Assembly: GCA_013204105.1 (NCBI GenBank)
Contig: JABMOM010000020.1
Location: forward strand, 1-64,000
DNA from: Flavobacteriales bacterium
GTDB taxonomy: Bacteria > Bacteroidota > Bacteroidia > Flavobacteriales_G > Salibacteraceae
Direction of reading: 5' to 3'
DNA: 64,000 nucleotides
Shown: piece after piece, positions 40,304 to 61,976 of the stretch
Position numbering within the stretch: the first letter of the stretch is position 1
How the letters are laid out: each line of letters opens with the position of its first letter
Program-made: the position numbers and the translations under genes
Notes under the pieces: generated by a model
The model's input: the letters and a program-made list of their open reading frames with translations, nothing else
Database searches by the model: none
Told to the model about the DNA's origin: nothing

Positions 40304-41542
40304 GTGATGTATCGAACACTTGCCACGAGCTTACTGCTTTCTGTTTCCATTTTTTGTCAAGCTCAGCCTGGAATGGAGTGGGGCATTCCTATGTCTTACC
40401 ATCACTTACTGCTTGAGTCACCCGCTTATGAAAATTTAGGTTACGAATACACTCCAGGCGGCAGCAATTCGCCCACTCGATTGTACCCACCAGAACTGAA
40501 TAAGATCAGCGAGGCATTTCTTGCTCACATTGACCGTCAACGCACCGTCGAAAGTCACAACGGTCCGTTGGGACCAACATACCCTTCTTCTCTTGGGGAT
40601 TGGCCCATGGGCAAAATATTGAGCAAGCGCGCATCGGGATCTCTCGAACCTTTCGGTAGGTATTTCATGGATGTTTCAAAAACGGAGAAGATAACCCAGA
40701 GGGAAGAGGGAGTATACCGTGACGACGAGGCTTTTATCGTGGAGGGGAGAATTGTTCGGGGATTTGACACGGTCTACACACAAGACCTCGCTACGGGAGA
40801 GCTGGTCGAAAAAGTGATTGAATTGAACACGGGGTTTCGCGAGAATGTAGCGGGACTTGGCTTTACGGAATTGTGGTCCTACGACAAGAAGAAGGCTTCT
40901 TTCCATAAAGAGATCAAGTACTTGTCTTTGGATGAAGGCGTTTTTTATGATGAATCCTACCGAGGACTTCGTTCCTTGCTCAATTTCAAGACGGCGAAGT
41001 TCAATAAGAAATACTTGGGCAGCGAAGGCTTGATTCGCAAAGGCATGCAGTCTGCGGAGTTCTTTGACCGCGATTTTAGGATTGAGGGTGAATGCTTCAC
41101 GGAAGGAATGGCAAAGTCTCCCCATGCCATCGGATACATCGAGCCCAGTGATCGGATAACGATGATCATGAACATTGTTGAAGGTGTGAAATCAGGCCAA
41201 GTCTCGATTTATCACTACAGCTTCATCGATTTTGACCCGGCTACAGCGAAAAAGGCAAGTGTTGAAGAATTTTTCAATGCACAAAGTATATCAGATACGG
41301 TCTTCTCAGAGGATCTTGTTACAGGTGAGTTTATGCAAAGTGTTGTTTCACATGACCTCGCGTTGGAGAAGGTAATCGGGTTTCAATTTCATGAAGACTG
41401 GTTCATCGATGTAGATAATTTCTCGATGTACAAGCGTGTCAACGGAATGGTCATGCTTTCGCTTGCCAAAGGGGACACCGGAGAGGTGAAGGGAGTGAAG
41501 CCCTTTGTCCCCTTTTACATCAAGTTCAATCCTCGAATGTAG
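40304..41542 (+). CDS. Exported protein, possibly GldN-like, with internal duplication
   Basis: A 412-aa protein with signal peptide MYRTLATSLLLSVSIFCQAQ. Two similar halves can be seen: DTVYTQDLATGELVEKVIE at about residue 155 and DTVFSEDLVTGEFMQSVV at about residue 335, each followed by a strand and an F/W-x-E-x-W-x-(Y/I)-D element. The end, GFQFHEDWFIDVDNFSMYKR then PFYIKFNP, resembles the closing part of gliding/T9SS protein GldN, in which an EDW-FD element precedes a membrane-facing end. This link is weak and I leave the symbol empty. Divergent from ybaB (81 nt). Confidence 0.65.
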   Translation: MMYRTLATSLLLSVSIFCQAQPGMEWGIPMSYHHLLLESPAYENLGYEYTPGGSNSPTRLYPPELNKISEAFLAHIDRQRTVESHNGPLGPTYPSSLGDWPMGKILSKRASGSLEPFGRYFMDVSKTEKITQREEGVYRDDEAFIVEGRIVRGFDTVYTQDLATGELVEKVIELNTGFRENVAGLGFTELWSYDKKKASFHKEIKYLSLDEGVFYDESYRGLRSLLNFKTAKFNKKYLGSEGLIRKGMQSAEFFDRDFRIEGECFTEGMAKSPHAIGYIEPSDRITMIMNIVEGVKSGQVSIYHYSFIDFDPATAKKASVEEFFNAQSISDTVFSEDLVTGEFMQSVVSHDLALEKVIGFQFHEDWFIDVDNFSMYKRVNGMVMLSLAKGDTGEVKGVKPFVPFYIKFNPRM

Positions 41543-42799: not shown

Positions 42800-42855
42800 G
42801 TCATCGACACACTCCTTTGGCGTGGTCGTGACTTTCTAGTGTCCTTGAAGCACGC
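42800..42855 (-). repeat. 3'-flank repeat, copy A (after the last TPR-SpoIIE gene)
   Basis: These 56 bases, counted to the first base of the stop of the 42855-45020 gene, are nearly identical to 51676-51731 after the stop of the 51731-53962 gene: the first ~42 bases differ at one position and no gaps are needed. It contains the plus-strand string gtcatcgac, also part of the coding end (VDD codons) of these genes. Confidence 0.7.
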
Positions 42856-45020
42856 TAGATGCGCACTCCAATGACGCAAACGTCATCGACTTGTTCATTG
42901 TCTGCTTTCCAGGCTTCGAAGTCTCGTTCTAGCAATTGTTTTTGATCGCTGATGGGTTCTAGGGCCAGGCGTTTGAGGGTTTCCTTGAATTTTACAGACT
43001 TGTACTTCTTGCCGCGTTCGCCTCCGAACTGATCGGGGTAGCCGTCGGAGAAGATGTAGATCGAATCTCCCGTTTCTAGTGCTACGGTATGGGTGGTATA
43101 GGGCAGGGGATCGTCTTGTTTTCCGATCGGTTGCTTGTTGGCCTTGTACTCGATGAGCTCACCATTTCGGATCAGCCACAGCGGATTGTTGGCTCCCGCG
43201 TATTTCAGCGTCTTTCCTTTCAAAGAGCACAGCGCGATGTCCATTCCATCTTTCACATCGTCTTCCGACTTTTCAAATTCTTGTATCACGATATCTCGCG
43301 CGTTGTCGAGGATTTTGCCCGGGTCGGTGAGCCCCATTTCACGTACCGAGCGATTGAGGCCGTTATTGCAGACTACAGATACCATTGCTCCTGGCACACC
43401 ATGTCCCGTGCAGTCGGCCGCCGCGAAGAGTACCTCACCGTCCTTTTCCTCCATCCAATAGAAGTCGCCTGCAACGATGTCTTTTGGTTTGTAGAGCACA
43501 AAAGCGTTGGGGAGCAGGGCTTTGAATACACTATCCGGCGGCAGCACCGCGGCCTGAATGCGCTTGGCGTAGTGGATGGAGTCGGTAATCTCTTTATGCG
43601 CATGCTCGATCTCTGCTTTTTGTTGAGCAAGTAATTTATTCTGTTCGCGGGATTTCCGCAGTCGACTGATAACGAAGAGCAGAAAGAGGGCAGAAAGGCC
43701 TAAGCCACCCGCAATGGAGTAGCTGATGACTGCTTGTTTTTGCTCACGTTCTTTGGCGACTTCAACTTTCTTTTGAGCAATGGCATCGTCCAATATTTTT
43801 TGACTCTCATACTCTAACCGCGCTTTGTCATAAACGATCATTTCTTGGATTTCATCGCTGTGCAAGCTGTCTTTTGTAGTTGTATAAAGCTTGAAATACT
43901 TCAGGCTCTCCTCCATGTTTCCGAGTTTCTCGTGAACGACAGCTAAATATTCTGCGGCGTTCATTCTTCGGTATGGATTATTCGCATCATTGGCAAGGGC
44001 AATTGCTGTATCGAGATGGGCTTTGGCTTTATACAATTCTTGGGTTCTTGCACTACCGATTAGTTCTAAACTATCAATTCGCATTAAGAATAATCTCCCT
44101 AGATGGGTATGAACATGCGTTTGCCCATCATGGTCACCAACTGATTTGCGATAGACAAGACTCATAGAGTAAGCTTCAAATGACTTATCCAAATTTCCAA
44201 GCTGTCGATTCGCTGTACCTAAAAAAGAGTAAACCCAGCCAAGGTGAGAATCGTAGCCGCGGTTTTTGGCGATATCATGCGCCTCATTTAGAAAGGGAAT
44301 TGCTTCCTGATTCTGCTCGGCAGTCAAGTAAGAAGCGGCTATGTTGAGGAGTGCCTGTACCTCTCCATGAGCAAAATTCACCTCAGGACTTCTGTATAAA
44401 GCCAGGGCACGCTGAGCTTGTTCTAATGCCTTTGGTGCTTCATGATTTTTTTGATAGAAGACACTCAGGTTGTTAGAAACCAGCGCAACTTGTTTCATGT
44501 CACCGATACTCTCACTGATTTCCATGCTTTTTTCCAAGTACTCAAATGATTTCATAACGTCACCTAAGTACTCGTAGGCTTGCGCGACATTGTTCATTCC
44601 TTCTGCCATTCCAGAAGAATCCCCAATTTGCTTTCGCAAAATGAGTGATTGCTCATAGTATTCCAATGCTTGCTCAACGTCGCCGTGCATTTGTGTGACA
44701 TACCCAATATTGTTTATTGCGAGTGCTTTGGCCTTAGATAACGTATAAATCTCTTCTTCCGTCGGATTGGCTGACAAGCCTTTATCCGCCATCTCGATTG
44801 CCTTCTTGCACAAAGGAGTCACAGATTCTAGGTCATATTCAGCCAGAATTTCGCTCATTCCAACGTAAGCCGCGGTCTTAGCCGCCATTGAACTGTTAGG
44901 GTCTTCGAGCGTAGCATTATAGTCTTCCATTAAATCATTCTGATCATCAGTTAGGTTTTGCGTAAAACCAGTCAGATTACATAGAAGAATTGACAATATA
45001 ACAAGGCTAAGTTTTTTCAT
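42855..45020 (-). CDS. TPR-SpoIIE/PP2C phosphatase 1 of the array (promoter-distal)
   Basis: A 721-aa transmembrane serine/threonine phosphatase. A signal peptide (MKKLSLVILSILLCNLTGF) precedes ~9 TPR repeats (about residues 40-385), a coiled segment, a membrane helix (IAGGLGLSALFLLFVISRL), a signalling helix with DSIHYAKRIQAAVLPPDS, and a cytoplasmic SpoIIE domain: VAGDFYWMEE, AADCTGHGVPGAMVS, VKDGMDIALCS, YIFSDGYPDQFGGERG, EQVDDVCVIGV. The catalytic Asp residues are all present. Topology is inferred. The ATG overlaps the stop of phosphatase 2 (ATGA). Targets unknown; SpoIIE enzymes usually act on STAS proteins. Confidence 0.9.
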   Translation of the reverse strand: MKKLSLVILSILLCNLTGFTQNLTDDQNDLMEDYNATLEDPNSSMAAKTAAYVGMSEILAEYDLESVTPLCKKAIEMADKGLSANPTEEEIYTLSKAKALAINNIGYVTQMHGDVEQALEYYEQSLILRKQIGDSSGMAEGMNNVAQAYEYLGDVMKSFEYLEKSMEISESIGDMKQVALVSNNLSVFYQKNHEAPKALEQAQRALALYRSPEVNFAHGEVQALLNIAASYLTAEQNQEAIPFLNEAHDIAKNRGYDSHLGWVYSFLGTANRQLGNLDKSFEAYSMSLVYRKSVGDHDGQTHVHTHLGRLFLMRIDSLELIGSARTQELYKAKAHLDTAIALANDANNPYRRMNAAEYLAVVHEKLGNMEESLKYFKLYTTTKDSLHSDEIQEMIVYDKARLEYESQKILDDAIAQKKVEVAKEREQKQAVISYSIAGGLGLSALFLLFVISRLRKSREQNKLLAQQKAEIEHAHKEITDSIHYAKRIQAAVLPPDSVFKALLPNAFVLYKPKDIVAGDFYWMEEKDGEVLFAAADCTGHGVPGAMVSVVCNNGLNRSVREMGLTDPGKILDNARDIVIQEFEKSEDDVKDGMDIALCSLKGKTLKYAGANNPLWLIRNGELIEYKANKQPIGKQDDPLPYTTHTVALETGDSIYIFSDGYPDQFGGERGKKYKSVKFKETLKRLALEPISDQKQLLERDFEAWKADNEQVDDVCVIGVRI

Positions 45021-47188
45021 ATTTTAAGACCAATTACACAAACATCATCGATCTGTTCTTGATCTGATTTCCAGGTTTCAAACTCGCGGTCTAGAAGCGT
45101 CTTCTGATCTACAAGTGGACTATTACTCAATTCTTTAAGAAAGGCTTTAAACTTGACCGACTTGTATTTCTTTCCATTTTCGCCTCCGAATTGATCTACG
45201 AAACCATCGGAGAAGATGTACACACTGTCACCGCTTTGAACCTCAATTGAATGCGTAGTGTAGGGCAGAGGTTCATCAAACTTGCCGATGGGTTGTTTAT
45301 TGGCCTTGTACTCGTGGAGCTCACCATTTCTGTATAGCCACAGTGGGTTGTTGGCACCGGCATACTTTAGCGTATTTCCATCAAGCGAGCAAAGTGCGAT
45401 GTCCATTCCGTCTTTTACTTCTTCTTCAGACTTTTCAAATTCGGAAACGACAATGTTTCGAGTGTTGTCTAGGATCTTGCCTGGGTCTGTTAAGCCCATT
45501 TCTCTAACCGATCTGTTGAGTCCATTGTTGCAAATGACCGACACCATAGCACCGGGCACTCCGTGACCAGTGCAGTCAGCTGCGGCGAACAGTACTGTTC
45601 CGTTTTTCTCTTCTAACCAATAAAAGTCACCTGCTACAATGTCCTTTGGTTTGTAGAGCACAAATGCATTCGGGAGCAAGGCCTTAAAAACGCTATTAGG
45701 TGGAAGCACAGCAGCTTGAATGCGCTTTGCATAGTGAATGGAGTCGGTGATTTCCTTATGCGACTGCTCAATAATTTCATTCTGTTGGGCCAAAAGCAAA
45801 TTCTGTTTTCGAGTAATACGAAGTCGGTTAAATACGAAAAAGAGGAAGACAGCTGAAAGTCCCAATCCTCCTGCAACTGAATAGGTAAGTATCCGCTGCT
45901 TTTCTTCTTGTTCAGCTGCAATTGCCAGCTCTTTTTCATGATTGGCTTCGTCGATTGCTTTTTGTTTTTCGTATTCGAATTTGAACTGCTCTTGAGCGAA
46001 GGCTGTTTGTTTTTCGTCGTTATCCAAACTGTCCTTTATCTGGATAAACTTTTGGTACATCTCGAAAGCATCGACTGTTCGTCCTTGTGCTTTGTAAACT
46101 TCAGTCAAGTCCTGAGCTGCTAGTTTCATTCGGTTCAAGTGCCCTATTTCATCAGCAATTTCCAGACTGCTTTCAAGGTTTTCTTCTGCCAACGTCAAAT
46201 ACTTAGAACGGTCGCCACTTGAAGTGCCTTTGCTCCGTGCCATAGCAGTGAATACTTCTCCCAAGTTCCTTTTAGCTTGCGAGATACCGACTTGGTTACT
46301 TATTCCCTCAGCTATATTCAAATTGTACGTGTAGTTTTCGATGGCAGTTTCATATTCGCCTAGTTTGAAATGAACTCTTCCGATTGCATATACGGCCATT
46401 CCTAAACCCATTTCATTTTCAAATTTTTTGAAGATTCCTTTCTGTTTGTTCAAGTAGAACAGAGCACTGTCCAATTGCCCCTCATCCTCATGCAACGAAC
46501 CAATGGTGCCATAATTAATTCCCACGCCAAATTCAAAGCCTGCTTTAGTGTTCGATACTACTCCACGTCTGGCCATCTCAAAAGCTTGTTGGTTCTCCCC
46601 CGCCATTTGATACATCATCGCTATATTTCCTTCAGCATTGCCCATCGATTTGGCGCGCCTGGTATCGACCGTGACAGTTTTAGCTAGTTCATATGATTCA
46701 TTGAAGTATTCGAGCGCTTTTGAATAGTCGCCTCTACTGCTCCACACGCTACCAATATTGCCTAGGCACTCCGCTATTCCATATGCGTCACCAATGGTTC
46801 TTCTCATTCGAAGTGACTGTTCCAAATACTCTAGAGCCGGTTCAATTTGCCCTTCTGTATTTAAGAGGAACCCCATATTATTTGTAGCGAGTCCCAAGGA
46901 TTGGGTTAAGCTCTTCACTACTTCTTCTGGTTGATCCTTTAATAAGGCTGCTTCAGCTACTTCTATGGCTTTTTCAGTCAAAGGACGTATGGAAGCATAA
47001 TCAGCTTGAGCCATGATTTCGCCCAAATTCACATAGGCCCTAGCCAGTGCAGTATCATGACTGTTCGGGTCTGCGATAATTTCGTTGTATCGTTCTAGCT
47101 TCGCTTGATCCCTCTCGCTGAATTCCTGGCCAACCGCACTTACTCCAAGGAAGGCCAAGATCATGATCAGTATTCTTTGTTTCATCAT
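45017..47188 (-). CDS. TPR-SpoIIE/PP2C phosphatase 2 of the array
   Basis: ATG 47188 gives 723 aa with a signal peptide (MMKQRILIMILAFLGVSAVG), TPR repeats to about residue 395, a membrane helix (VAGGLGLSAVFLFFVFNRL), the KEITDSIHYAKRIQAAVLPP signalling helix and a complete SpoIIE catalytic domain (VAGDFYWLEEKN, ADCTGHGVPGAMVS, DGMDIALCSLDG, IFSDGFVDQFGGENG, QIDDVCVIGLKI). The start overlaps the stop of phosphatase 3 by ATGA and its stop overlaps phosphatase 1. The catalytic part is nearly the same as in phosphatase 1 and 3-4, while the TPR part differs more. Confidence 0.9.
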   Translation of the reverse strand: MMKQRILIMILAFLGVSAVGQEFSERDQAKLERYNEIIADPNSHDTALARAYVNLGEIMAQADYASIRPLTEKAIEVAEAALLKDQPEEVVKSLTQSLGLATNNMGFLLNTEGQIEPALEYLEQSLRMRRTIGDAYGIAECLGNIGSVWSSRGDYSKALEYFNESYELAKTVTVDTRRAKSMGNAEGNIAMMYQMAGENQQAFEMARRGVVSNTKAGFEFGVGINYGTIGSLHEDEGQLDSALFYLNKQKGIFKKFENEMGLGMAVYAIGRVHFKLGEYETAIENYTYNLNIAEGISNQVGISQAKRNLGEVFTAMARSKGTSSGDRSKYLTLAEENLESSLEIADEIGHLNRMKLAAQDLTEVYKAQGRTVDAFEMYQKFIQIKDSLDNDEKQTAFAQEQFKFEYEKQKAIDEANHEKELAIAAEQEEKQRILTYSVAGGLGLSAVFLFFVFNRLRITRKQNLLLAQQNEIIEQSHKEITDSIHYAKRIQAAVLPPNSVFKALLPNAFVLYKPKDIVAGDFYWLEEKNGTVLFAAADCTGHGVPGAMVSVICNNGLNRSVREMGLTDPGKILDNTRNIVVSEFEKSEEEVKDGMDIALCSLDGNTLKYAGANNPLWLYRNGELHEYKANKQPIGKFDEPLPYTTHSIEVQSGDSVYIFSDGFVDQFGGENGKKYKSVKFKAFLKELSNSPLVDQKTLLDREFETWKSDQEQIDDVCVIGLKI

Positions 47189-49344
47189 ACCTTCATCCCA
47201 ATTACGCATACATCATCGATCTGTTCCAAGTCACCACGCCATTGTTCAAACTCTCGGTTGAGCAGTTCTTTTTGATCGCTGATCGGGTGTTTTGCCATTC
47301 GGATCAGCGTTTCCTTCAGTTGGATGCTCTTGTATTTCTTTCCTTTCTCTCCGCCAAATTGGTCTACGTACCCATCCGAGAACAAGTAAATGGAGTCTCC
47401 GTCTTGAAGTTCGATGGTGTGACTGGTGAATGGGGTAGGGTTGTCCTGCTTTCCGATGGCTTGCTTGTCTGCCTTGAATTCCAGCAATTCTCCTTTGCGT
47501 ATGAGCCATAGTGGGTTATGCGCACCAGCGTAGTGGAGCGTTTTCCCTTCCAACACGCACAAGGCGATATCCATTCCATCTTTGACATCATCCGCAGATT
47601 TATCAAATTCCTTGATGACGATGTCGCGCGTGTTGTCCAAGATTTGGCCAGGGTCGGTCAAGCCAAGTTCCCGCACGGAGCGATTGAGTCCATTGTTGCA
47701 CACAACCGATACCATGGCGCCAGGTACTCCATGACCTGTACAATCTGCCGCGGCGAAATAAATCTTCCCTGCCTTCTCTTCCAACCAATAGAAGTCTCCG
47801 GCCACGATGTCTTTGGGCTTGTACAGAACGAAAGCCGTGGGAAGCAGGGATTCAAACAATGCATCCGATGGCAAGACCGCCGCTTGGATCCGCTTGGCGT
47901 ATTTGATGGAATCTGTGATCTCCTTGTGGGCTGCTTCAATGACTTCCTTTTGTTGATGTAAGGCGACTTTTTGACGCTTCGTAACTTGAAGTCGGTTGAA
48001 GATCAATCCTAAGAAAATGGCTGTCATTCCCAGTCCACCGGCAATTCCATAAGTATAGAGCTTCTGCCGTTCCTCCTTCGCTTCTAAGAGTGCCACTTCT
48101 TCTAAATGCCGGATATCTTCTTGTATTTTTTGCCGCTCAAATTCTGCTTCGATTTTAGCGTTGGCAAAGCGTTCTTGGTTTTCTTTTGACTTCAATTTAT
48201 CCCTAGCTACAATAAATGCTTGGTGCGCTTCAAAGGCTTTTTCAAAATCCCCCTTTTCGCTGTAAATCAAGTAGAGAATCTCGTAGGCTTTAAACTGGCG
48301 AGTTATATCCCCAAGCTCCTTTGAGCGAAGGGTTGCTTCAGAAGCGATGTTTTCGGCTGATTGGAGTGATTGTAATCGTTCCTGAGGGCTGGATGCTGCA
48401 GATTGAGCTAAGTGAAGCAAAGCTGTGCTTCTAAGGATCATACCCTGAATAATGAATCCTGGGTGCTCATGTTCGTTCGCTGCTTCTTGATACTTTGTAA
48501 AATACTCCAATTCTTTTTTGTGATCACCCAGTTGACCATGCACCTTTCCTAAGCCATTGTATGAAGCGTAAGTCCCGTATGCAAGTCCATATTTTAAGGA
48601 AATGTCGAGGGCCTTTTCCAAGTATTCTTTGGCTTCTTTGAGTTCGCCTCTTTTCTCGTGAATTGCACCAACCCCTGCATAGGCTTTGACAAGGCCAGGG
48701 TTGAACTGAATGGGTTCCAATTGGTCCATGGCACGCTGGTAATAGTCTAATGCCGCTGCGGTATCCTGAATCCACGTATTGAGGTCTGCTAGGTTTACTA
48801 AAACCATACCTATTCCAACCTCATCGTTGATTTCTTCTACTATTGCTAAGCTCTCCTTCAGCATGTCATGGGCCTTGGCGAGATTGCCTTGGCGGGTATA
48901 CATCACAGACATGTTGGTCATCGTTTCTGCGATGCCTCTTTTATCTCCGATTTGCCTGCGTAAGATCAAGGCTCGTTGAAATAATTCGATCGATTTTGCA
49001 GCTTGATGCTGGCCAGAATATAAAGATCCTTTGTCGCTGATGGCTTGGATCATGGACTTATTAAAACTTTGAGAAACAGCGTCTGGTTGCTCGCTCATCA
49101 ATCCTTTCTCTGCAATGGAAATCGCCTTATCTGCAAAAGACATGGCAACCTCTTCGTCAGAGTAAAAGTAGATCTGCAACAAGCCCGAGTAGGCGGCTGC
49201 TAGCGCTGTGTCATGGCTGTTTGGGTCTTCAAGAATATCGTTATAATGGGCGATTTTGACGTGCTGTTCTTCAGTAAACTCTTGCGTTAAGCCAATAACC
49301 GAACATAAGACCAAGAGAAGCGATATGAGAAAACGTCGCATCAT
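47185..49344 (-). CDS. TPR-SpoIIE/PP2C phosphatase 3 of the array
   Basis: ATG 49344 gives 719 aa; the signal peptide (MMRRFLISLLLVLCSVIGLT), TPR region (about residues 30-390), membrane helix (IAGGLGMTAIFLGLIFNRL), signalling helix (KEITDSIKYAKRIQAAVLPSD) and SpoIIE domain (VAGDFYWLEEKAG, ADCTGHGVPGAMVS, DDVKDGMDIALC, IYLFSDGYVDQFGGEKG, QIDDVCVIGMKV) are in the same order as in phosphatases 1, 2 and 4. The frame is open further upstream but this lies within the next gene. ATGA overlap with phosphatase 4, so four genes are tied together. Its TPR part has more basic and Gln-rich linkers. Confidence 0.9.
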   Translation of the reverse strand: MMRRFLISLLLVLCSVIGLTQEFTEEQHVKIAHYNDILEDPNSHDTALAAAYSGLLQIYFYSDEEVAMSFADKAISIAEKGLMSEQPDAVSQSFNKSMIQAISDKGSLYSGQHQAAKSIELFQRALILRRQIGDKRGIAETMTNMSVMYTRQGNLAKAHDMLKESLAIVEEINDEVGIGMVLVNLADLNTWIQDTAAALDYYQRAMDQLEPIQFNPGLVKAYAGVGAIHEKRGELKEAKEYLEKALDISLKYGLAYGTYASYNGLGKVHGQLGDHKKELEYFTKYQEAANEHEHPGFIIQGMILRSTALLHLAQSAASSPQERLQSLQSAENIASEATLRSKELGDITRQFKAYEILYLIYSEKGDFEKAFEAHQAFIVARDKLKSKENQERFANAKIEAEFERQKIQEDIRHLEEVALLEAKEERQKLYTYGIAGGLGMTAIFLGLIFNRLQVTKRQKVALHQQKEVIEAAHKEITDSIKYAKRIQAAVLPSDALFESLLPTAFVLYKPKDIVAGDFYWLEEKAGKIYFAAADCTGHGVPGAMVSVVCNNGLNRSVRELGLTDPGQILDNTRDIVIKEFDKSADDVKDGMDIALCVLEGKTLHYAGAHNPLWLIRKGELLEFKADKQAIGKQDNPTPFTSHTIELQDGDSIYLFSDGYVDQFGGEKGKKYKSIQLKETLIRMAKHPISDQKELLNREFEQWRGDLEQIDDVCVIGMKV

Positions 49345-51521
49345 ACCTTCATTCCAATTACGCATACATCGTCGATCTGCTCTAAGTCGCCCTTCCATGA
49401 CTCAAACTCTCGATCGAGCAAGGTCGACTGATCCATGATGGGCTGCTGGCAGATCTCTGTCAGCTTCGCCTTGAATTTCAGCGACTTGTATTTCTTACCT
49501 CGCTCACCGCCGAACTGATCTACGTAGCCATCTGAAAATAGGTAGATGGAGTCTCCGGTTTGTAATTCAATGGTGTGTGTGGTGTAGGGGAGTGGGTTGT
49601 CGTGTTTGCCGATGGGTTGTTTGTCGGCTTTGTATTCGATCAATTCTCCGTTGCGGATCAACCACAGTGGGTTGTTGGCCCCGGCATACTTCAAAGTTTT
49701 TCCTTTTAAGGAGCAAAGGGCGATGTCCATTCCGTCCTTTACCTCATCCTCTGATTTCTCAAATTCTCGCACCACGATGTCGCGTGTGTTGTCAAGAATC
49801 TTTCCGGGCTCGGTCAATCCCATTTCGCGTACCGATCGGTTGAGGCCGTTATTGCAAATGACCGACACCATCGCGCCAGGAACGCCATGCCCTGTGCAAT
49901 CCGCAGCAGCGAACAGGATGAGATCATCTTTTTGTTCCAGCCAATAGAAGTCGCCAGCTACGATGTCTTTTGGTTTGTAGAGAACAAAGGCGTTAGGTAG
50001 AAGAGTTCTAAAAACACTATCTGGTGGAAGCACCGCCGCTTGGATCCGCTTGGCATAGTGGATGGAGTCGGTGATTTCTCGGTGGGATTCTTCGATGATG
50101 GCTTTTTGCTGCGTGATTGCTTTTTTCTGTCGATTGGTGACTCGAATTCTATTCACGGCAAAGAGTAAGAACAAGGCAGATAGTCCTAAGCCTCCTGCGA
50201 TGGAGTAAGTGTAGACTTTTTGTTTGGCCTCTCGCTCAGCGGCAACTGCAAGTTCTTTCTCGTGTTCAGCATCGATTTGACTTTTTTCTAACTGAAATTC
50301 TGCGAGGATTGTGGCCTTGGTATATGATTCCTGAGATTCACTATTACTAATACTATCTCGTATTTGTGTGAAAAGCGACTGCAGCTCATATGCCTTCTTG
50401 AAATCACCTGACTCTGCATATATTTCATGGATGATCTCTGTCCCAAATTTGATTCTAGCTGCGTGACCGATTTCTAATGCCATGTCCAGACTTTTTTGAG
50501 ATGCTTCTAAAGCCTTGGTCAATAAAATCTTCTTTTCAGCAGAGCTAATCCCAGCCACTTTCGCTTGCCTGAAGTAGACTTCACCGAGGTATCGTAGCGT
50601 CTGTGAGATCATTACGGGGTTTTTGAGTTGGTTGCGTATCTCTAAGCTTCGATTTAGGTCTTCCAACGCCAGGTCAAAATTTCCTTGTTTCGTGTATCCA
50701 ATCCCTCGAGATATCAGAGCTAATCCAATGCCTTCCTTGTAATCAATTTCTTCAGCTAAATGGAGAGATTTTTCAGCATATTCGATTGACTTCTCGTAAT
50801 CCCCCAAATTTTTATAATTATAAGAAACAGAATTTAAGGCGTGAGTATGAGCTGTTTTCCATGTGCCACGACTCAAATAATCAGACCCTTCTAAGGCATA
50901 TTTTAATGCATCCTGGTAATTTTCTTGTGCGCTATATGCATCGGCAATATTGGACTTGATAATGCCAATGTGGTCGGGGTTTTTTCCTATCTCCATGAGA
51001 ATATTCAAGCTTTCCATAAAGAATTGCAGTGTTTTCTCAGAATCACCGAGGCTTTGATGCGTTACCGCCAAGTTGTTCAGGGATTCAGCAATCTTTGATT
51101 TATCGCCGACTTGTTTTCTGAGTAAAAAGGCTTTTTGTTGATAGTCCAACGCTTTGCGTAGGTCTCCTTCTCCCTGATATTTGGCTCCAATATTATTAAG
51201 GGCTGTAGCTCTGTATCCACTGAGCACGTTTAAGATGTCCTCGTCATCATATTTTGGAATAGCCTTTTCGGCTGCCTTAAGAGCCTTTTCTCCCAGATTT
51301 CCCGATGATTGTACATCGCCTTTGTATGCGAACAATTCAGAGAGGCCGATATATGCTCCGGCAATGGCAGTGTCATGCGCTGTAGGGTCTTCCAACGTTT
51401 TATTGAAAGCTGCGATTTTCTCTAGCTGAGATTGATTAAACTGCTGGGCAAAAGACAGCGTAGGTAATATAAAGGCCAATGGAATGACGCACAGGCGAAA
51501 AAGAAGAACGTGTCGGAACAT
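49341..51521 (-). CDS. TPR-SpoIIE/PP2C phosphatase 4 of the array
   Basis: ATG 51521 gives 726 aa. Signal peptide (ending PTLSFAQ), TPR repeats (about residues 45-395), membrane helix (IAGGLGLSALFLLFAVNRI), signalling helix with DSIHYAKRIQAAVLPPDS, SpoIIE domain (VAGDFYWLEQKD, ADCTGHGVPGAMVS, KDGMDIALCSLKG, YLFSDGYVDQFGGERG, QIDDVCVIGMKV). It is the first of the four ATGA-linked genes; the 209-nt gap upstream of its start (51522-51730) should hold the promoter of this sub-operon, and no other gene is seen there. The TPR part by eye is clearly richer in A+T than the catalytic part. Confidence 0.9.
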   Translation of the reverse strand: MFRHVLLFRLCVIPLAFILPTLSFAQQFNQSQLEKIAAFNKTLEDPTAHDTAIAGAYIGLSELFAYKGDVQSSGNLGEKALKAAEKAIPKYDDEDILNVLSGYRATALNNIGAKYQGEGDLRKALDYQQKAFLLRKQVGDKSKIAESLNNLAVTHQSLGDSEKTLQFFMESLNILMEIGKNPDHIGIIKSNIADAYSAQENYQDALKYALEGSDYLSRGTWKTAHTHALNSVSYNYKNLGDYEKSIEYAEKSLHLAEEIDYKEGIGLALISRGIGYTKQGNFDLALEDLNRSLEIRNQLKNPVMISQTLRYLGEVYFRQAKVAGISSAEKKILLTKALEASQKSLDMALEIGHAARIKFGTEIIHEIYAESGDFKKAYELQSLFTQIRDSISNSESQESYTKATILAEFQLEKSQIDAEHEKELAVAAEREAKQKVYTYSIAGGLGLSALFLLFAVNRIRVTNRQKKAITQQKAIIEESHREITDSIHYAKRIQAAVLPPDSVFRTLLPNAFVLYKPKDIVAGDFYWLEQKDDLILFAAADCTGHGVPGAMVSVICNNGLNRSVREMGLTEPGKILDNTRDIVVREFEKSEDEVKDGMDIALCSLKGKTLKYAGANNPLWLIRNGELIEYKADKQPIGKHDNPLPYTTHTIELQTGDSIYLFSDGYVDQFGGERGKKYKSLKFKAKLTEICQQPIMDQSTLLDREFESWKGDLEQIDDVCVIGMKV

Positions 51522-51675
51522 GAACGGGTTCGAGTAGGTTAGGTTTGGCACAAGATAGAAATAGTCTAAATAACATCAGACATCATTAGAATAGTGCCGA
51601 ATCCTACCCTGGGATGCAGTTGTGGTTTTCTAGCACATCTTTAGTAAGTTAGACGCCTACGCAGATTACGCAGAC

Positions 51676-51731
51676 GTCATCGACACACTCCTTCGGCGTG
51701 GTCGTGACTTTCTAGTGCCTTCGGCGCACGC
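51676..51731 (-). repeat. 3'-flank repeat, copy B (after TPR-SpoIIE gene 5)
   Basis: Nearly identical to 42800-42855 and at the same distance from its gene's stop codon. Just beyond, on the minus strand, a gtcgatgacgtctgcgtaat string copies the VDDVCV-encoding end of the phosphatase genes out of frame, so the flank looks like a displaced piece of a phosphatase 3' end. Confidence 0.7.
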
Positions 51732-53962
51732 TATACGCGCACTCCAATGACACAGACGTCATCGACTTGCTCGTTGTCTCCTCTCCATTTTTCGAACTCA
51801 TTTGCTAGGATGGGTTTTTGTTCGGCGATGGGTTCAGGACAGATCCTTAAAAGGGTCTTTTTGAAATTTCCGCTTTTGTATTTCTTGCCATTGGTTCCGC
51901 CGAATTGATCAGGGTAGCCGTCGCTGAAAACGTAGATGGTATCGTTTTCGTTGAGCTTGACTCGGTGGGTGGTGAACGGCTTGGCCATTTCAAATTTACC
52001 GATGGGTTGTTTGTCGGCTTTGATCTCTTCTATTTCTTCAGACCCAGCTCGGATGATCCATAAGGGATTGTGTGCCCCGGCCCATTCCAGTGCCTTGGTT
52101 TTTGTGTTCAAGGCACATAACGATATGTCCATGCCGTCTTTCACGTCCTCTTCGCTTTTTTCAAATTCTTTGATGACCAATTCTCTGGTTTGATCAAGGA
52201 TCTGGCCTGGATCGCGCAGTCCAAACTCTCGAACGGATCGATTCAGTCCGTTGACACAGATCACCGATACCATGGCGCCCGGCACCCCGTGTCCCGTGCA
52301 ATCAGCCGCGGCAAAGTATACCACATCATCTATGGCTTCCATCCAGTAGAAATCGCCGGCTACTACATCCTTAGGTTGATAAAACACAAAGCTTTCAGGA
52401 AGGTGCTCCTCTATTATGCGATCGGGAGGGAGGATGGCGGTCTGAATTCTCTTGGCATAGATGATTGAATCCATTACCTCCCGGTTTTTCTCTTCTACCA
52501 ACATGCGTTGAAGGTCGATTTGGTCACGCTGGCTTTCTACCTGCTCTTTCTGTGCTTGAATGACCCTATTGTCTCTTCGCTTCAGGGCGAACCCGTAGCC
52601 CATCAGGACCAAAAGGATCATGGCAGCTACTAAACCTCCGATCAGTAGGAGTCGTCGGCTTCTTTCTTCGCCGAGCTTTGCCTGAGACAATAGTTGCTCC
52701 TGCTCCAGGTTTTCGATCTCCAATTGCTTTTGTTCATTTTGAAAGCGTGCTTCCATTTCCTGGATCGCATCCTGACGACTTCGGGAGTACAGAGAATCCT
52801 TTTCGTCACTGTGCTGTTGTAAGGATAGGTATGCCTCTTTTGATTTGCCCACATGAAAGAACAACTCGGCTAAGTCACGATGCCAGTGGGTGTAGTCTTC
52901 AATGGTTCCAATCTCTTTGGATAGATGAATGGCCTCTTGCATGAAGGACTCGGCCCTGTCGGAATTGCCTAATTCGAATTCCACTTGACCAAGCGTGTGT
53001 AGCGTGATCGATAAGAATCGCTTTTCACCGATTTCTCGAAAAACGTCCAATGCGCTGTTGAGTTTTGCCTTGGCCTCATTCCAGCGTTCAGCTTTGGCCA
53101 AGGTTTCTCCTTCGTTCATGCGCATTGACGCCGCGCGCGATCGCTCTCCTAAAAGTTCGTAGTTCTGAGCTGCAAGATCCAAGAAGTAAAGCGCAGAGTC
53201 AATTTCATCTTCGTAGAATGCAAATTGCGCCTGCAATGAAAACACCGATGCCAGTCCGTAGAGGTCATCGCGCAATAGATAGATCTCCCGGGCTTCTCTT
53301 AAATTTTGCTTCGATTTCGTATCCTCCTCTTGCTCGGCATAAAAAACCGCAAGGTTAAAGGTCATGACCCCCAATTGACTGCTGTCTTTTCTGGACTTCG
53401 CTAAATCGATGGATTTGAGTAAGAATTCGAGTTCCTTTACTTTTTCGCCTCGTTCGTGGTAGATGGTGCTGATGTTCAGGAAGGCTCCTGTGAGCGCTAC
53501 ACTGTCCTTAGAAGCAATGGCAAATTTCTTCGTGAGCTCAAAGTAATGGAAGGCACTGTCATAATTCCCGAGATCCGTGTGAGCATTTCCCATGCTCAGG
53601 TATTGCCTCGCCATCTTGTCTTGGCGGTCAACAGACTTGTATAAGGCAACGGCTTTCCGTCTAAATTTCAGAGAACCAAGGATATCGCCTTTCAAGTAAA
53701 CCGAACGAGCCAGGTAATGTGTTCCACCGGCCTGCCAGTACGAGTTGTCCTGTGTTTTCGCCTCGTCTACTAGGCGTTGTCCCCAGTATTCCAAATCTTC
53801 AGGGAGCGTTACGCTTGAAGCTTGATCTCCAATAGCGGTCAGCCTTTCTTCACCGGCCTTTGTCATGATGAGTGCCTCCAAGCTATCTGAGGTTGACTGC
53901 CCTTGAGCAAGGCCTATCGTAAGCAGATAGATCGGAAGAAGGAGGAAACGAAGTGCTGACAT
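51731..53962 (-). CDS. TPR-SpoIIE/PP2C phosphatase 5 of the array
   Basis: ATG 53962 gives 743 aa; the extra N-terminal residues of the longer frame are ignored because MSALRFLLLPIYLLTIGLAQ is a clean signal peptide. TPR-like repeats (about 45-400) are more degenerate than in genes 1-4. The membrane helix is LLLIGGLVAAMILLVLMGYG, the linker is REVMDSIIYAKRIQTAILPP, and the SpoIIE domain is complete (VAGDFYWMEAIDD, ADCTGHGVPGAMVS, DGMDISLCALN, YVFSDGYPDQFGGTNG, EQVDDVCVIGV). It is separated from gene 4 by 209 nt and from gene 6 by 76 nt. Its linkers are more diverged than those of the ATGA-linked four. Confidence 0.9.
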   Translation of the reverse strand: MSALRFLLLPIYLLTIGLAQGQSTSDSLEALIMTKAGEERLTAIGDQASSVTLPEDLEYWGQRLVDEAKTQDNSYWQAGGTHYLARSVYLKGDILGSLKFRRKAVALYKSVDRQDKMARQYLSMGNAHTDLGNYDSAFHYFELTKKFAIASKDSVALTGAFLNISTIYHERGEKVKELEFLLKSIDLAKSRKDSSQLGVMTFNLAVFYAEQEEDTKSKQNLREAREIYLLRDDLYGLASVFSLQAQFAFYEDEIDSALYFLDLAAQNYELLGERSRAASMRMNEGETLAKAERWNEAKAKLNSALDVFREIGEKRFLSITLHTLGQVEFELGNSDRAESFMQEAIHLSKEIGTIEDYTHWHRDLAELFFHVGKSKEAYLSLQQHSDEKDSLYSRSRQDAIQEMEARFQNEQKQLEIENLEQEQLLSQAKLGEERSRRLLLIGGLVAAMILLVLMGYGFALKRRDNRVIQAQKEQVESQRDQIDLQRMLVEEKNREVMDSIIYAKRIQTAILPPDRIIEEHLPESFVFYQPKDVVAGDFYWMEAIDDVVYFAAADCTGHGVPGAMVSVICVNGLNRSVREFGLRDPGQILDQTRELVIKEFEKSEEDVKDGMDISLCALNTKTKALEWAGAHNPLWIIRAGSEEIEEIKADKQPIGKFEMAKPFTTHRVKLNENDTIYVFSDGYPDQFGGTNGKKYKSGNFKKTLLRICPEPIAEQKPILANEFEKWRGDNEQVDDVCVIGVRV

Positions 53963-54038
53963 GGGCGGTAAAAATAGCCAATGGTCCGAATTGACCGCCA
54001 TGCCCGAATTCACAAAACAGGGACTTCAACAGAACGCG

Positions 54039-56177
54039 CTATACGCGCACTCCGATTACGCAGACGTCATCGACTTGTTCGTTTTTTCCTCTCCAGCTGT
54101 GGAACTCATTATGAAGAAGGTCGTGTTGCTCGGGAGTGGGGTGGGTTTGAATGCTGAGAAGGAATCGCTTTAAGTTCTTGCTCTTGTACTTCTTATTCTT
54201 CGGTCCTCCAAACTGATCGGGATAGCCGTCGCTGAACACATAAAACGCGTCTCCTTCGTTGAGCTGGATTTTATGCGTTGTATACAGAGAGCGATTTGGG
54301 TAGCGTCCAATGGGTTGCTTGTCTGCTTTGACCTCGTACAATTGTGGGCCTGCTTCAGACAGAGATGGGTCGCTAGTGAGCTCACCTCCACTCAGCATTT
54401 CGGGTAGGTCGTTTGAAATAATCCAAAGTGGATTGTTAGCTCCAGCCCAATGCAACTCCTTTGTCTTCGTGTTGTAAGCGCAAAGCGCGATGTCCATACC
54501 ATCCTTGACTTCTTGCTCACTTTTTTCAAAAGTTTCGTCGACGATCAGCGCCGTACGATCGAGGATTTCGCCGGGATCTCTGAGTTGGAATTCGCGTACG
54601 GATCGATTCAAAGCGCCATGACATACCACGCTAACCATGGCTCCTGGAACGCCGTGCCCCGTGCAATCGGCAGCGGCGAAGAGTACAAGGTCGTCTACTT
54701 GCTCTAGCCAATAAAAGTCACCAGCAACGATGTCTTTCGGTAAGAAAAGGACAAACGAATTAGGCACTTGCTCAGCAAAGAGAAGGTCAGGAGGGAGGAT
54801 GGCTTCCTGGATGCGTTTGGCATAGGTGATCGAATCAATGATTTCTTTGTTTTTTTCTTCGAGTTCATCGCTCTTCTCCTTTAGATCAGTGGTACGTTCT
54901 GCCACTTGTTGTTCTAGCATGATGTTTTGATCTCGCGTTATCCTATTTAGCTCCTCCAAGCTGTCAAATGATTCCTTTTGCGCCACTTCTTTCTCCTTTT
55001 GGATGTCGCGGTAGCGACTGACCATGGCCAAAGAGAGGAAGGTTACCTCCGCAGCAGATCCCAATTTGATCGCATTCTGGCTGAGGAAATCGCTGTAGAT
55101 CAAGTTAAAGTTGGTTAGGATAAATACGATCCCTCCGGCGAGCACAGAAAGGAAACCGAGCGCGAAGAACACATTGACATCTCCCTTCACACGTTGGTTC
55201 CAGCCGATTCCCAAGATGATGACTAAGAGGGAGATAAGAGACATCCCATTGACAACGGGATAGGTGAGCTCGTATATTGTGCCCGATGTCAACCCAGTGA
55301 TGACGCAGAGTCCTACGACGATCAGCAGGGTTCGGTAGATGGATCGGTACCATTTTGGCATCCCATGAATATCTAGGAAATCTGCTGCGTAGAGCATGAG
55401 CATAAAGACGGAAGCTCCAGAGAAGAACAGGATGGAATGATTTGCAATCCACGGGAATGAGGGCCAGATATACTCAAATGCCAGTCCATCTATAGAGGCC
55501 TGCATGAAGAAAAGGAAAACCACGAAGCTCACATAGTAAGAGTAGATCCGTTCTTTCACAACGATGGCGAAAAAGAGGAAGAGTCCAGCCACGAAAATCA
55601 GTAATCCGTAATAGATGCCGAGCGTTAGGTTCTCACGTTGAATGAATCCGTTGAAGTTGTCTTTTTCCCATAATTTGATCGGCAGGGTGATCACCTCACC
55701 GTCACTGCGCAGTTGCAGGACTAGCTTTGCATCTTCATCCGATCTAAGGGTGAGGGGGAAGACGAATTTCCGATAGATCACCGGACGGTCGTCAAAAGGG
55801 ACTTCGTCTCCAGCGGCGTAGAGCAATTCAGACATGCCGCGGGTTACCCGGTATAAGTTTACAACGTTGGTCAATGGTCGCGCGGTCTCGATGTAGTATT
55901 CGTGACTGATGTCTGTACCGTTGGATAAGGCAAATTTTACCCACCAGGTTGAGGTAGTGAAGTTGAGGTTGGCAACGTTTTCCGTTATGGGATTGAAGAG
56001 CGAGTCGTATTTCCCAACAGCGACTTCCGCAACAGTCCATTCATGCCCGGGATCCTCCGCGATGTAAGCCGTGGTTGCAATGTGCGTATACTTTGGTCCA
56101 TGCGCCAACAGGGTGATGGAGCTGAAGAGCAAGAGCATGCTAAGGGCTGCTGTGATGAGATGATTGGTTTGGCGCAT
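54039..56177 (-). CDS. 7TM-DISM receptor fused to SpoIIE/PP2C phosphatase
   Basis: A 712-aa protein; signal peptide, then a periplasmic 7TMR-DISM extracellular domain (about residues 30-165; WWVKFALSN and YYIETARPL-like strands), seven hydrophobic helices (about 180-395), a coiled coil rich in Glu/Lys, the linker KEIIDSITYAKRIQEAILPP, and a SpoIIE domain with VAGDFYWLEQVDD, ADCTGHGVPGAMVS, VKDGMDIALC, YVFSDGYPDQFGGPKN and QVDDVCVIGVRV. A ~25-residue Ser/Gly-rich insertion splits NPLWII from KADKQPIG. 7TM-DISM modules bind ligands such as carbohydrates and here replace the TPR sensor. It follows the thioredoxin-like gene by 22 nt. Confidence 0.92.
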   Translation of the reverse strand: MRQTNHLITAALSMLLLFSSITLLAHGPKYTHIATTAYIAEDPGHEWTVAEVAVGKYDSLFNPITENVANLNFTTSTWWVKFALSNGTDISHEYYIETARPLTNVVNLYRVTRGMSELLYAAGDEVPFDDRPVIYRKFVFPLTLRSDEDAKLVLQLRSDGEVITLPIKLWEKDNFNGFIQRENLTLGIYYGLLIFVAGLFLFFAIVVKERIYSYYVSFVVFLFFMQASIDGLAFEYIWPSFPWIANHSILFFSGASVFMLMLYAADFLDIHGMPKWYRSIYRTLLIVVGLCVITGLTSGTIYELTYPVVNGMSLISLLVIILGIGWNQRVKGDVNVFFALGFLSVLAGGIVFILTNFNLIYSDFLSQNAIKLGSAAEVTFLSLAMVSRYRDIQKEKEVAQKESFDSLEELNRITRDQNIMLEQQVAERTTDLKEKSDELEEKNKEIIDSITYAKRIQEAILPPDLLFAEQVPNSFVLFLPKDIVAGDFYWLEQVDDLVLFAAADCTGHGVPGAMVSVVCHGALNRSVREFQLRDPGEILDRTALIVDETFEKSEQEVKDGMDIALCAYNTKTKELHWAGANNPLWIISNDLPEMLSGGELTSDPSLSEAGPQLYEVKADKQPIGRYPNRSLYTTHKIQLNEGDAFYVFSDGYPDQFGGPKNKKYKSKNLKRFLLSIQTHPTPEQHDLLHNEFHSWRGKNEQVDDVCVIGVRV

Positions 56178-56199: not shown

Positions 56200-57093
56200 T
56201 CAACGTTGGAAGGCACATTTTGCCAATTCGATTTGCCTGCCCAACTGTTCAGCGTGCGAAGTGTTGTCCGTTCCCGAAGCGCCGATAATGTGAAAGCGAA
56301 TGATACCCTTTGCGTCAACGATGAAATGCTGAGGGGCAGAACGGATGTCAGCGGAGTCAAGGAAGGCCTTCGCTAGTGGAATTTGACGATAGGTAAAGTC
56401 GATGTCCAGATCCATCCATTGTGATGCATGTCTATCAGACTGGAAGAATCCCGGAGCGTAATAGGTGATCAGTTCGCCGTCGTTGATCACTGAGTCTCGG
56501 TAAAAGGCGAGGAACTGCACGTCTGGGTCATCGGCGTAAGATGCCTTCAGGGTGTTGAGGTTAGGGATCTCTTCCATGCAAGGCATGCATCCGTATTGCC
56601 AGGTATTGATGTGTGTAATCTTCCCCTCCAATACCGTGTTGTCTAAAACGATTCCGTCAGCATCCTTGATCTTAAAGGATGGGAAGGCTCGGCCGTTGCG
56701 CGGATGCCTTCTCGTGCGCCAGTTATTGTGTACACGCGCTTGCTCTTCGAGCATTGCCGCTCTGGGCGCTTCGGGATCCTCCCATGCTGGATCGTAGAGC
56801 GGATGTGGGGTGGCGGATAAGCGATACACCTTCGATAGCGTACACTGCTCGATGTCCACCACCTCAATACGGTGCATTCCCGTATCGACGGGCATGATTC
56901 GGATGTCGTCCCCTAGATGACTGATGATGATCTGTGACGCTGCGTTTAGCACTTCGTTTGGCTTCATTTCAATCTCCAGCGGATAAGCCTTGAAAGTATA
57001 GGCGTTTCCGAGGTCGATCTCTTCTGGTTGAGGCGTGCACCTGAACACCACAAGGGAGGTAAAGATGAGGGCGGCGATGTTCCATAAACGCAT
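56200..57093 (-). CDS. Thioredoxin/TlpA-like lipoprotein
   Basis: ATG 57093 gives 297 aa with signal peptide and lipobox (ending LVVFRC). The mature protein has an N-terminal ~130-residue region of unknown fold, then a redoxin domain with FPSFKIKDADG, NTWQYGCMPCMEEIPNLN (the CxxC active site, C-M-P-C, equivalent to thioredoxin WCGPC), and the C-terminal cis-Pro region APQHFIVDAKGIIRFH. It is probably a periplasmic thiol-disulfide exchange protein. It lies 22 nt upstream of the 7TM-SpoIIE gene in the same direction and probably shares its transcript. The partner of its N-terminal part is unknown. Confidence 0.82.
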   Translation of the reverse strand: MRLWNIAALIFTSLVVFRCTPQPEEIDLGNAYTFKAYPLEIEMKPNEVLNAASQIIISHLGDDIRIMPVDTGMHRIEVVDIEQCTLSKVYRLSATPHPLYDPAWEDPEAPRAAMLEEQARVHNNWRTRRHPRNGRAFPSFKIKDADGIVLDNTVLEGKITHINTWQYGCMPCMEEIPNLNTLKASYADDPDVQFLAFYRDSVINDGELITYYAPGFFQSDRHASQWMDLDIDFTYRQIPLAKAFLDSADIRSAPQHFIVDAKGIIRFHIIGASGTDNTSHAEQLGRQIELAKCAFQR

Positions 57094-57167
57094 GAAACGA
57101 ATGTAATTTTTTTTCAAGCCCAGCAAGGCCTCCCATCCATGGTTGATAAAATCTATAGAAAACGATT

Positions 57168-61800: not shown

Positions 61801-61976
61801 AGGAGGCCATGATCGAAGACCCGCGCTACAGTGAAGAAAAAAACATCAAGAAGCCGGAACGCAAGAACTACAGGGACGCGGATAAACTGGCCATATCTAC
61901 CGAAAACAACAACCAAAACGCACGGTATTTTGACAAAGGGACCAAGCGGCGAACCAATGCGCCGCGTGAGGGATAG
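58875..61976 (+). pseudogene. dnaE: DNA polymerase III alpha subunit-like (second DnaE), interrupted by in-frame TAG
   Basis: The frame 58875-61976 (1033 codons) is open except for one TAG at 59508-59510, in ...LEQYQ(stop)FPEVVRN...; CAG to TAG, one transition. N-terminal PHP domain (MLTNTHTYFSLKYGTW; VCVTDINNT), then the polymerase with FYVGRGSGANSVIAYI, catalytic PDFDIDF (residues 354-358), KGNFDMRKL, AGGILISELPI, MVYQEDVIKVAHY and AKGHSASYAVESYQ, ending with a ~270-residue OB/tau-binding-like region. Too short for a replicative DnaE1 with added domains, it is probably the repair-type DnaE found with dinB. Alternatives to a pseudogene are a sequence error or amber readthrough. Confidence 0.87.

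What the first reader, a model, noticed from the sequence alone, without database searches (positions are those of the whole stretch)
42855..56177. Six consecutive envelope-sensor SpoIIE/PP2C phosphatase genes
Six same-strand genes encode proteins with the same order: signal peptide, sensor part, membrane helix or helices, YAKRIQ linker, SpoIIE domain with all catalytic Asp residues. Five have TPR sensors, one a 7TM-DISM sensor; four are tied by ATGA overlaps. Single TPR-SpoIIE genes are known in Bacteroidota, but six side by side with near-identical outputs and diverged inputs suggest a many-sensors-to-one-response device. The window has no STAS protein, HPK-type anti-sigma kinase or sigma factor, so the target must be elsewhere.
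Basis: partly seen in the sequence, partly recalled or inferred. Interest (0 to 1): 0.78.

Follow-up and report, generated by a model that had tools for sequence, protein, structure and literature searches.

The report
Receptor-phosphatase array of Sia-type switch
Six neighbouring genes in a Bacteroidota genome encode membrane sensors with a shared protein-phosphatase output that most likely all reset a small switch protein (SiaC), not the sigma-factor switch first proposed, and what that switch controls here is unknown because its usual target is missing.

Summary
The six genes are real, intact and same-strand, with catalytic residues kept. Genes 4-1 are joined by ATGA overlaps and are lineage-specific tandem duplicates. 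Their sensors share 25-31% identity, their outputs 73-83%, with synonymous sites near saturation in both parts: purifying selection on the output, not recent gene conversion.

The proposed STAS/RsbW/sigma target is not supported. The outputs belong to the SiaA class of the Pseudomonas SiaABC switch: 6K4E at 1e-56, next SpoIIE at 2.5e-6. The genome has a SiaB-SiaC gene pair on another contig. SiaA-class and SiaB presence agrees in 59 of 60 relatives and, at the curated SiaB cut-off, in 148 of 148 phylum genomes. SiaA-class genes lie within three genes of 22 of 67 SiaC genes but 0 of 39 STAS genes.

The usual effector, a diguanylate cyclase, is absent. In four relatives an ABC-2 exporter gene follows siaC, where siaD sits in Pseudomonas: a candidate effector. 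Similar arrays recur elsewhere. Nothing was tested biochemically.

The parts
54039..56177 (-). Gene 6 (first in transcription order): N-terminal hydrophobic segment, 7TMR-DISMED2 + 7TMR-DISM, SiaA-class PP2C, 712 aa
   Evidence: Pfam; PDB 6k4e at 4.2e-33; relative (65%) near the same polymerase genes in same-genus G003
51731..54013 (-). Gene 5: TPR sensor, membrane helix, SiaA-class PP2C, 760 aa in the longest reading
   Evidence: Pfam; NCBIfam SiaA C-terminal match 170 bits; output clusters with own C7 and a G001 gene
49341..51551 (-). Gene 4: TPR sensor, membrane helix, SiaA-class PP2C, 736 aa in the longest reading
   Evidence: Pfam; clade of genes 1-4 (100/96)
47185..49344 (-). Gene 3: TPR sensor, membrane helix, SiaA-class PP2C, 719 aa from the ATGA start
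   Evidence: Pfam; ATGA overlap with gene 4
45017..47188 (-). Gene 2: TPR sensor, membrane helix, SiaA-class PP2C, about 723 aa from the ATGA start
   Evidence: Pfam; PDB 6k4e at 3.7e-35; models; fold match
42855..45020 (-). Gene 1 (last): TPR sensor, membrane helix, SiaA-class PP2C, 721 aa
   Evidence: Pfam; ATGA overlap with gene 2
56200..57126 (-). Redoxin/AhpC-TSA domain protein, same strand, ends 22 bp before gene 6; possibly the head of the same transcript
   Evidence: Pfam; coordinates; co-transcription not tested

Best explanation
The array encodes six envelope receptors whose shared cytoplasmic output is a SiaA-class PP2C phosphatase. Each sensor (TPR superhelix or 7TM-DISM receptor) signals through its membrane helix or helices and a linker helix to align the phosphatase dimer and switch it on (inferred from SiaA, RsbU and SpoIIE). 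The active phosphatases remove phosphate from Thr of SiaC, opposing the kinase SiaB; both are encoded as a pair on another contig. Unphosphorylated SiaC then binds an effector. Thus several envelope inputs converge on one or two phospho-switch proteins. In P. aeruginosa the effector is the diguanylate cyclase SiaD; no GGDEF protein was found in this genome, so the effector differs. An ABC-2 exporter, found downstream of siaC in four relatives, is the leading candidate. Shown by sequence: class, intact residues, gene sets, co-occurrence, linkage in relatives, selection pattern. Inferred: activity, topology, activation mechanism, SiaC as substrate of these six, convergence, effector.
For: Profile of the output domain hits SiaA 6K4E at 1.2e-56 (195 bits) over 262 positions including the linker helix; next is SpoIIE at 2.5e-6. 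Foldseek 1.3e-21 and VIA Z 29.4 for SiaA against Z 21.3 for the next row. NCBIfam SiaA matches genes 2, 5 and 6 in their C-terminal part. Own genome: siaB (NF038262, 126 bits, cut-off 85) and siaC (PF09345, 150 bits, cut-off 24.5) adjacent on C25; own SiaC keeps NTSS around the phosphorylated Thr. SiaA-class (E <= 1e-30, my threshold) with SiaB: 44 both, 0 and 1 alone, 15 neither (p=3e-13); with SiaC 42, 2, 2, 14 (p=8e-10); with single-domain STAS 40, 4, 4, 12 (p=2e-6); Spearman of counts 0.90, 0.91, 0.58. Phylum sample: the 8 of 148 genomes with SiaA-class are the same 8 with SiaB over the curated cut-off; at least 3 of the 148, own included, were also in the first sample. Linkage: SiaA-class within three genes of 22 of 67 SiaC genes (14 in same-strand runs) against 0 of 39 STAS genes (p=1e-5), with about 1.6 expected by chance. 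TPR-type phosphatase in one run with siaC and siaB in L090.
Against: The array is not linked to siaB-siaC in its own genome. Two SiaA residues modelled in P. aeruginosa as SiaC contacts (F612, R652; PMC7647112) are K and V/I in the array. Among the siaC-near Bacteroidota phosphatases printed none has F612 either, and most carry GKK, NKK or NRK there as the array does; L135 was misread by the pattern and several later-found ones were not printed. Own SiaB and SiaC fall below the cut-offs of the narrow P. aeruginosa-type equivalog models (66 of 225 and 94 of 150 bits). STAS also co-occurs with SiaA-class genomes, though less tightly. Only two siaC-adjacent phosphatases were confirmed by Pfam as TPR type (L089, L090); the other three scanned carry Reg_prop (L091) or PAS/GAF (L118, L133). 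A second, diverged SiaC and a double SiaB mean that two outputs are possible. Genomes are related, so p-values overstate independence.
Confidence: 0.72

Rival explanations
1. One reading: the array dephosphorylates a STAS anti-anti-sigma factor, releasing a sigma factor from an RsbW-type kinase (RsbU/SpoIIE-type general stress response).
For: The genome has a single-domain STAS protein, an RsbW-like kinase and an RsbU-like phosphatase. STAS co-occurs with SiaA-class genes in 40 of 44 genomes.
Against: Output class is SiaA, not RsbU/SpoIIE. The genome's own RsbU-like protein does not match 6K4E at E 0.01 and could serve the STAS protein. 0 of 39 STAS genes in relatives have a SiaA-class phosphatase within three genes. 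4 of 44 SiaA-class genomes lack a detected single-domain STAS (some are incomplete), against 0 of 44 lacking SiaB.
Confidence: 0.1
2. Insulated parallel pathways: the paralogues split between the two SiaC/SiaB sets or have private substrates, so the array is several lines and not one converging device.
For: Two SiaC genes and two SiaB genes exist. Genes 5 and 6 belong to other output clades than genes 1-4.
Against: Outputs of genes 1-4 are 73-83% identical at near-saturated synonymous divergence, and the linker and catalytic core are invariant in all six. There are far fewer SiaC genes than SiaA-class genes (2 to 12 here; 152 to 341 in 60 genomes).
Confidence: 0.2
3. Neutral tandem duplication: redundant receptors kept by chance with no integrating role.
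For: The array is lineage-specific: the same-genus loci fetched have single copies.
Against: Synonymous sites are near saturation yet all six frames and all catalytic residues are intact. Tandem arrangements recur in 16 of 79 named loci.
Confidence: 0.12

Closest known systems
SiaABCD partner switch of Pseudomonas aeruginosa (SiaA PP2C phosphatase, SiaB kinase, SiaC phosphoprotein, SiaD diguanylate cyclase; PMC7647112 and PMC8457831, abstract and/or passages seen)
   Same: Output phosphatase class, membrane receptor with helical linker, presence of SiaB and SiaC homologues with the phosphorylated Thr context kept.
   Different: 12 SiaA-class receptors in the genome; TPR and 7TM-DISM sensors in the array in place of the HAMP receptor (a HAMP-type one exists on C8); array unlinked to siaBC; no GGDEF protein; full-length SiaA model not met.
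RsbU/SpoIIE-type phosphatases acting on STAS proteins (B. subtilis general stress response and sporulation)
   Same: PPM/PP2C fold; activation through a linker-driven dimer is plausible (PMC12143880, abstract and outline seen).
   Different: Sequence class, gene linkage and best structural match all point to SiaA.
7TMR-DISM and S-helix receptors with PP2C output (PMC1592074, passages seen)
   Same: Helical linker between sensor and PP2C; gene 6 has the 7TMR-DISM type of sensor.
   Different: The passages seen name no SiaB/SiaC partner.
Tandem SiaA-class arrays in other Bacteroidota MAGs (L205, L218, L262, L278)
   Same: Four or five consecutive or near-consecutive same-strand SiaA-class genes.
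   Different: These four were not put in the tree. Arrays that were (G058 C40; two genes of G046 C60) fall apart from own genes 1-4, as separate expansions.

Membership tests
SiaA-class PP2C phosphatase (output domain) | Output domain closer to SiaA than to RsbU, SpoIIE or RsbX | tested here: met
   6K4E 1.2e-56 against SpoIIE 2.5e-6, RssB 8e-5, RsbX 0.008; Foldseek and VIA rank 1
SiaA-class PP2C phosphatase (output domain) | Catalytic acidic residues intact | tested here: met
   Invariant in six of six; which residues bind metal is recalled, not from a call
SiaA-class PP2C phosphatase (output domain) | SiaB and SiaC homologues in the same genome | tested here: met
SiaA-class PP2C phosphatase (output domain) | Dephosphorylates SiaC | not testable with these tools
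   Needs biochemistry
SiaA proper (NF038263 equivalog) | Full-length match over the 700-bit cut-off | tested here: not met
   170-185 bits, C-terminal part only, for genes 2, 5 and 6; genes 1, 3 and 4 not scanned
SiaABCD pathway | SiaD-type diguanylate cyclase (GGDEF) as effector | tested here: not met
   0 GGDEF in own genome (96% complete); 2 of 60 relatives have any
SiaABCD pathway | siaA linked to siaBC | tested here: not met
   Array on C17, siaBC on C25; linkage seen in relatives
SiaABCD pathway | SiaC-contact residues F612 and R652 | tested here: not met
   K and V/I in the array; contact role is a docking model in PMC7647112
RsbU/SpoIIE STAS-targeting phosphatase | Output closest to RsbU/SpoIIE | tested here: not met
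RsbU/SpoIIE STAS-targeting phosphatase | Gene linkage of this class to STAS genes | tested here: not met
   0 of 39 STAS genes in relatives
RsbU/SpoIIE STAS-targeting phosphatase | Cognate alternative sigma factor in the genome | not tested
   No sigma-factor search was run

The most novel reading that the evidence does not exclude
In this branch of Bacteroidota the Sia phospho-switch has been rewired: large, repeatedly expanded sets of envelope receptor phosphatases (12 here, up to 41 in the relatives searched) converge on few SiaC/SiaB pairs, and SiaC's effector is not a diguanylate cyclase but an ABC-2 exporter that took siaD's place after siaC, making a second-messenger-free relay from envelope sensing to export.
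Probability: 0.25. Interest if true: 0.75.

Novelty: new variant of a known kind. Interest (0 to 1): 0.56.

Why it matters
Some Bacteroidota carry dozens of 'SpoIIE' receptors of unknown target (up to 41 of this class in one relative). The data tie this class to SiaB/SiaC in place of the default STAS and sigma-factor guess, and make the target directly testable. They also pose a clear open question: what SiaC controls where no GGDEF protein exists, with one concrete candidate.

Tried and rejected
Recent gene conversion as the cause of alike outputs: rejected, since synonymous differences are near saturation (pS 0.72-0.85 in outputs of genes 1-4) and the longest identical run among genes 1-4 is 23 nt. 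c-di-GMP output by a GGDEF protein: rejected for this genome.

The EPS sugar-transferase gene beside siaC was considered as an effector. It is convergent with siaC and was found in 7 of the 70 siaC loci compared (own, five genus members, G015), so it is treated as synteny. The exporter as a Sia-only protein: rejected, it is in 53 of 60 genomes including ten without a SiaC hit.

A regular expression used undercounted SiaA-class genes; a profile with a 100-bit floor replaced it (own RsbU-like protein scores 53). The SiaC sample is the non-genus sites in listing order down to G038:C190: 64 loci, 67 SiaC genes by my profile. Five of these loci (L089-L092, L100) were first fetched because a nearby phosphatase was visible, but they belong to that listing; without them the count is 17 of 62. 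In L115, L132 and L139 no SiaC gene was called. The STAS sample is 40 loci; one (L186) gave no STAS call, so n is 39. The chance figure assumes 0.9 genes per kb. One search took the best 79 loci of 305 matches, and its tandem counts include partial or apparently broken ORFs (for example the first of the five in L205) and allow one ORF between members. Promoter, terminator, Rfam and sigma-factor searches were not run. The full-length model of gene 2 is weak in its C-terminal half, so the domain model was used for the fold search.

Literature: searches gave no paper on TPR-SpoIIE arrays or on SiaC of this kind in Bacteroidota as far as listings show; of the hits of those on Bacteroidota I looked at passages in PMC12088040 and PMC9239204 only. 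The library lacks most subscription papers.

Full report
OBSERVATION. Six minus-strand ORFs at 42855-56177 each end in a SpoIIE/PP2C domain; five carry TPR repeats and one a 7TMR-DISM receptor. All catalytic-type acidic residues and the YAKRIQ linker are invariant. Genes 4, 3, 2 and 1 are joined by ATGA overlaps. A model of gene 2 shows a TPR superhelix to about residue 387, long helices across the membrane segment, then PP2C; its C-terminal half is of low confidence.

ORIGIN. In a tree of output domains genes 1-4 form one clade (100/96) whose sister is a single gene of same-genus G001 (100/98); gene 5 groups with own C7 and a G001 gene, gene 6 with G005 and G010 genes (bootstrap not fully settled). 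In same-genus G003 a single gene-6 relative (65% over 701 residues) lies one ORF away from the polymerase gene that also lies beyond the redoxin gene in the window. The array is therefore a local expansion. Synonymous sites are near saturation in sensors and outputs alike (one of six gene 1-4 output pairs still gives a finite dS, 2.4), so it is old, and the likeness of outputs reflects purifying selection. Genes 1-4 show 25-31% identity in sensors and 73-83% in outputs.

CONTROLS FOR SENSOR DIVERGENCE (N-terminal part / output). Likely orthologues C7 and G001: 61 / 83%. Gene 6 and G005: 70 / 71%. Gene 6 and G010: 59 / 66%. Gene 6 and G003: 67 / 64%. But the only TPR pair of likely orthologues, gene 5 and L060, gives 36 / 60%, so TPR sensors may change fast even between orthologues. 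Extra divergence of the array sensors through duplication is therefore suggested, not shown.

RECURRENCE. Of 79 named genome loci fetched with this family, 16 hold two or more SiaA-class genes in tandem, 7 hold three or more, and the largest have five (L205, L218), partial ORFs included. All record titles name Bacteroidota groups, mostly Flavobacteriales and Bacteroidia MAGs. The array is a striking case of a recurrent arrangement, not a unique one. G001's contig length (393,380) equals that of Flavobacteriales MAG SI074_bin77, which suggests that the genus lies in that order (inference).

CLASS OF THE OUTPUT. Sequence profile, Foldseek and VIA all rank the SiaA PP2C domain (6K4E) first by a wide margin. 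PMC7647112 (abstract and passages seen) states that 6K4E is SiaA, that SiaA and SiaB balance phosphorylation of SiaC at T68, and that SiaC resembles anti-sigma factor antagonists in fold. The RsbU-like protein of this genome does not hit 6K4E at E 0.01.

PARTNERS IN THE GENOME. SpoIIE-family genes: 14, of which 12 are SiaA-class. siaB and siaC are adjacent on C25. A double-domain siaB lies on C33 and a diverged siaC on C17 at 216705 with NTAS in place of NTSS. The putative phosphorylated position is T or S in 76 of 77 SiaC homologues aligned, the P. aeruginosa row excluded. Other SiaA-class proteins of the genome carry TPR (two), HAMP, YfiR-like and GldM-like domains, and one has no further domain.

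CO-OCCURRENCE AND LINKAGE. In 60 relatives (own included) SiaA-class and SiaB agree in 59, SiaA-class and SiaC in 56, SiaA-class and single-domain STAS in 52. In an evenly drawn phylum sample of 148 genomes the 8 with SiaA-class genes are exactly the 8 with SiaB above the curated cut-off; three further genomes have weak SiaB hits below it. The two samples share at least G000, G054 and G059. Of 67 SiaC genes outside the genus, 47 have SiaB and 22 a SiaA-class gene within three genes; of 39 STAS genes none has a SiaA-class gene, and two have an RsbU-class one. About 1.6 of 67 would be expected by chance. Relatedness among genomes inflates these p-values; the linkage hits come from 12 genomes.

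MECHANISM. Most likely each receptor uses its membrane and linker helices to set the phosphatase dimer, as reported for RsbU and proposed more widely in PMC12143880 (abstract and outline seen); SiaA crystallised as a dimer (PMC7647112). Active receptors would dephosphorylate SiaC against SiaB. PMC8457831 (passages seen) reports that phosphorylation of SiaC precludes its binding to SiaD and suggests that DUF1987 (SiaC) proteins modulate adjacent proteins. With no GGDEF protein in this genome another effector is needed. In L118, L125, L133 and L136 the same-strand order is SiaA-class, SiaB, SiaC, ABC-2 exporter (the exporter of L125 is cut by the contig end). The domain naming rests on a homologue in L093: ABC_tran and ABC2_membrane pass their cut-offs, an N-terminal TerB match (21.6 bits) stays below its cut-off of 24.4; the four linked copies, 43-49% identical to it, were not scanned. 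In seven other loci the exporter lies next to SiaC but on the opposite strand (L093, L109, L112, L114, L121, L124, L129). Own genome has two exporter copies, unlinked to siaC, and the exporter also occurs in genomes without SiaC. This is a lead, not a result.

LIMITS. Nothing here shows phosphatase activity, SiaC as substrate, or convergence. Two P. aeruginosa SiaC-contact residues are not kept. The TPR type is directly tied to siaC in only two scanned loci.

Noticed in passing
58875-61976: A gene that I read as DNA polymerase III alpha-like (no family search run) is split by one in-frame stop; same-genus G003 has it as one 1028-aa ORF near the same upstream polymerase gene. Sequencing error, decay or true split not resolved.
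   Followed up: partly
L050:8388-10457: Own genome gene on C7 fuses a GldM N-terminal-like domain to a SiaA-class phosphatase, a possible tie between gliding/type IX secretion parts and this switch.
   Followed up: no
L061:9790-11997: The G003 relative of gene 6 keeps the 7TM-DISM sensor (67%) but its output groups with the gene-5 clade (92/84, not starred) and is nearer gene 5 (71%) than gene 6 (64%): a possible output-domain swap.
   Followed up: partly
L160:6266-7363: A protein with two SiaB-type (DUF6272) domains; paired SiaB matches of the same kind appear in 11 of the 12 other same-genus genomes searched, one with a stop inside.
   Followed up: partly
L056:7454-10558: A Reg_prop SpoIIE protein of the own genome lacks the usual GDFYW and DCTGHG motifs in its printed C-terminal part; perhaps an inactive phosphatase.
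   Followed up: no
L261:2826-10882: A run of proteins of about 450-590 aa with weak (34-40 bit) matches to the SiaA-class profile; the first, the only one scanned, has TPR but no recognised output domain.
   Followed up: no
40304-41542: A 412-aa protein with a GldN-like C-terminal match (6.8e-7) lies about 1.3 kb beyond the array.
   Followed up: no
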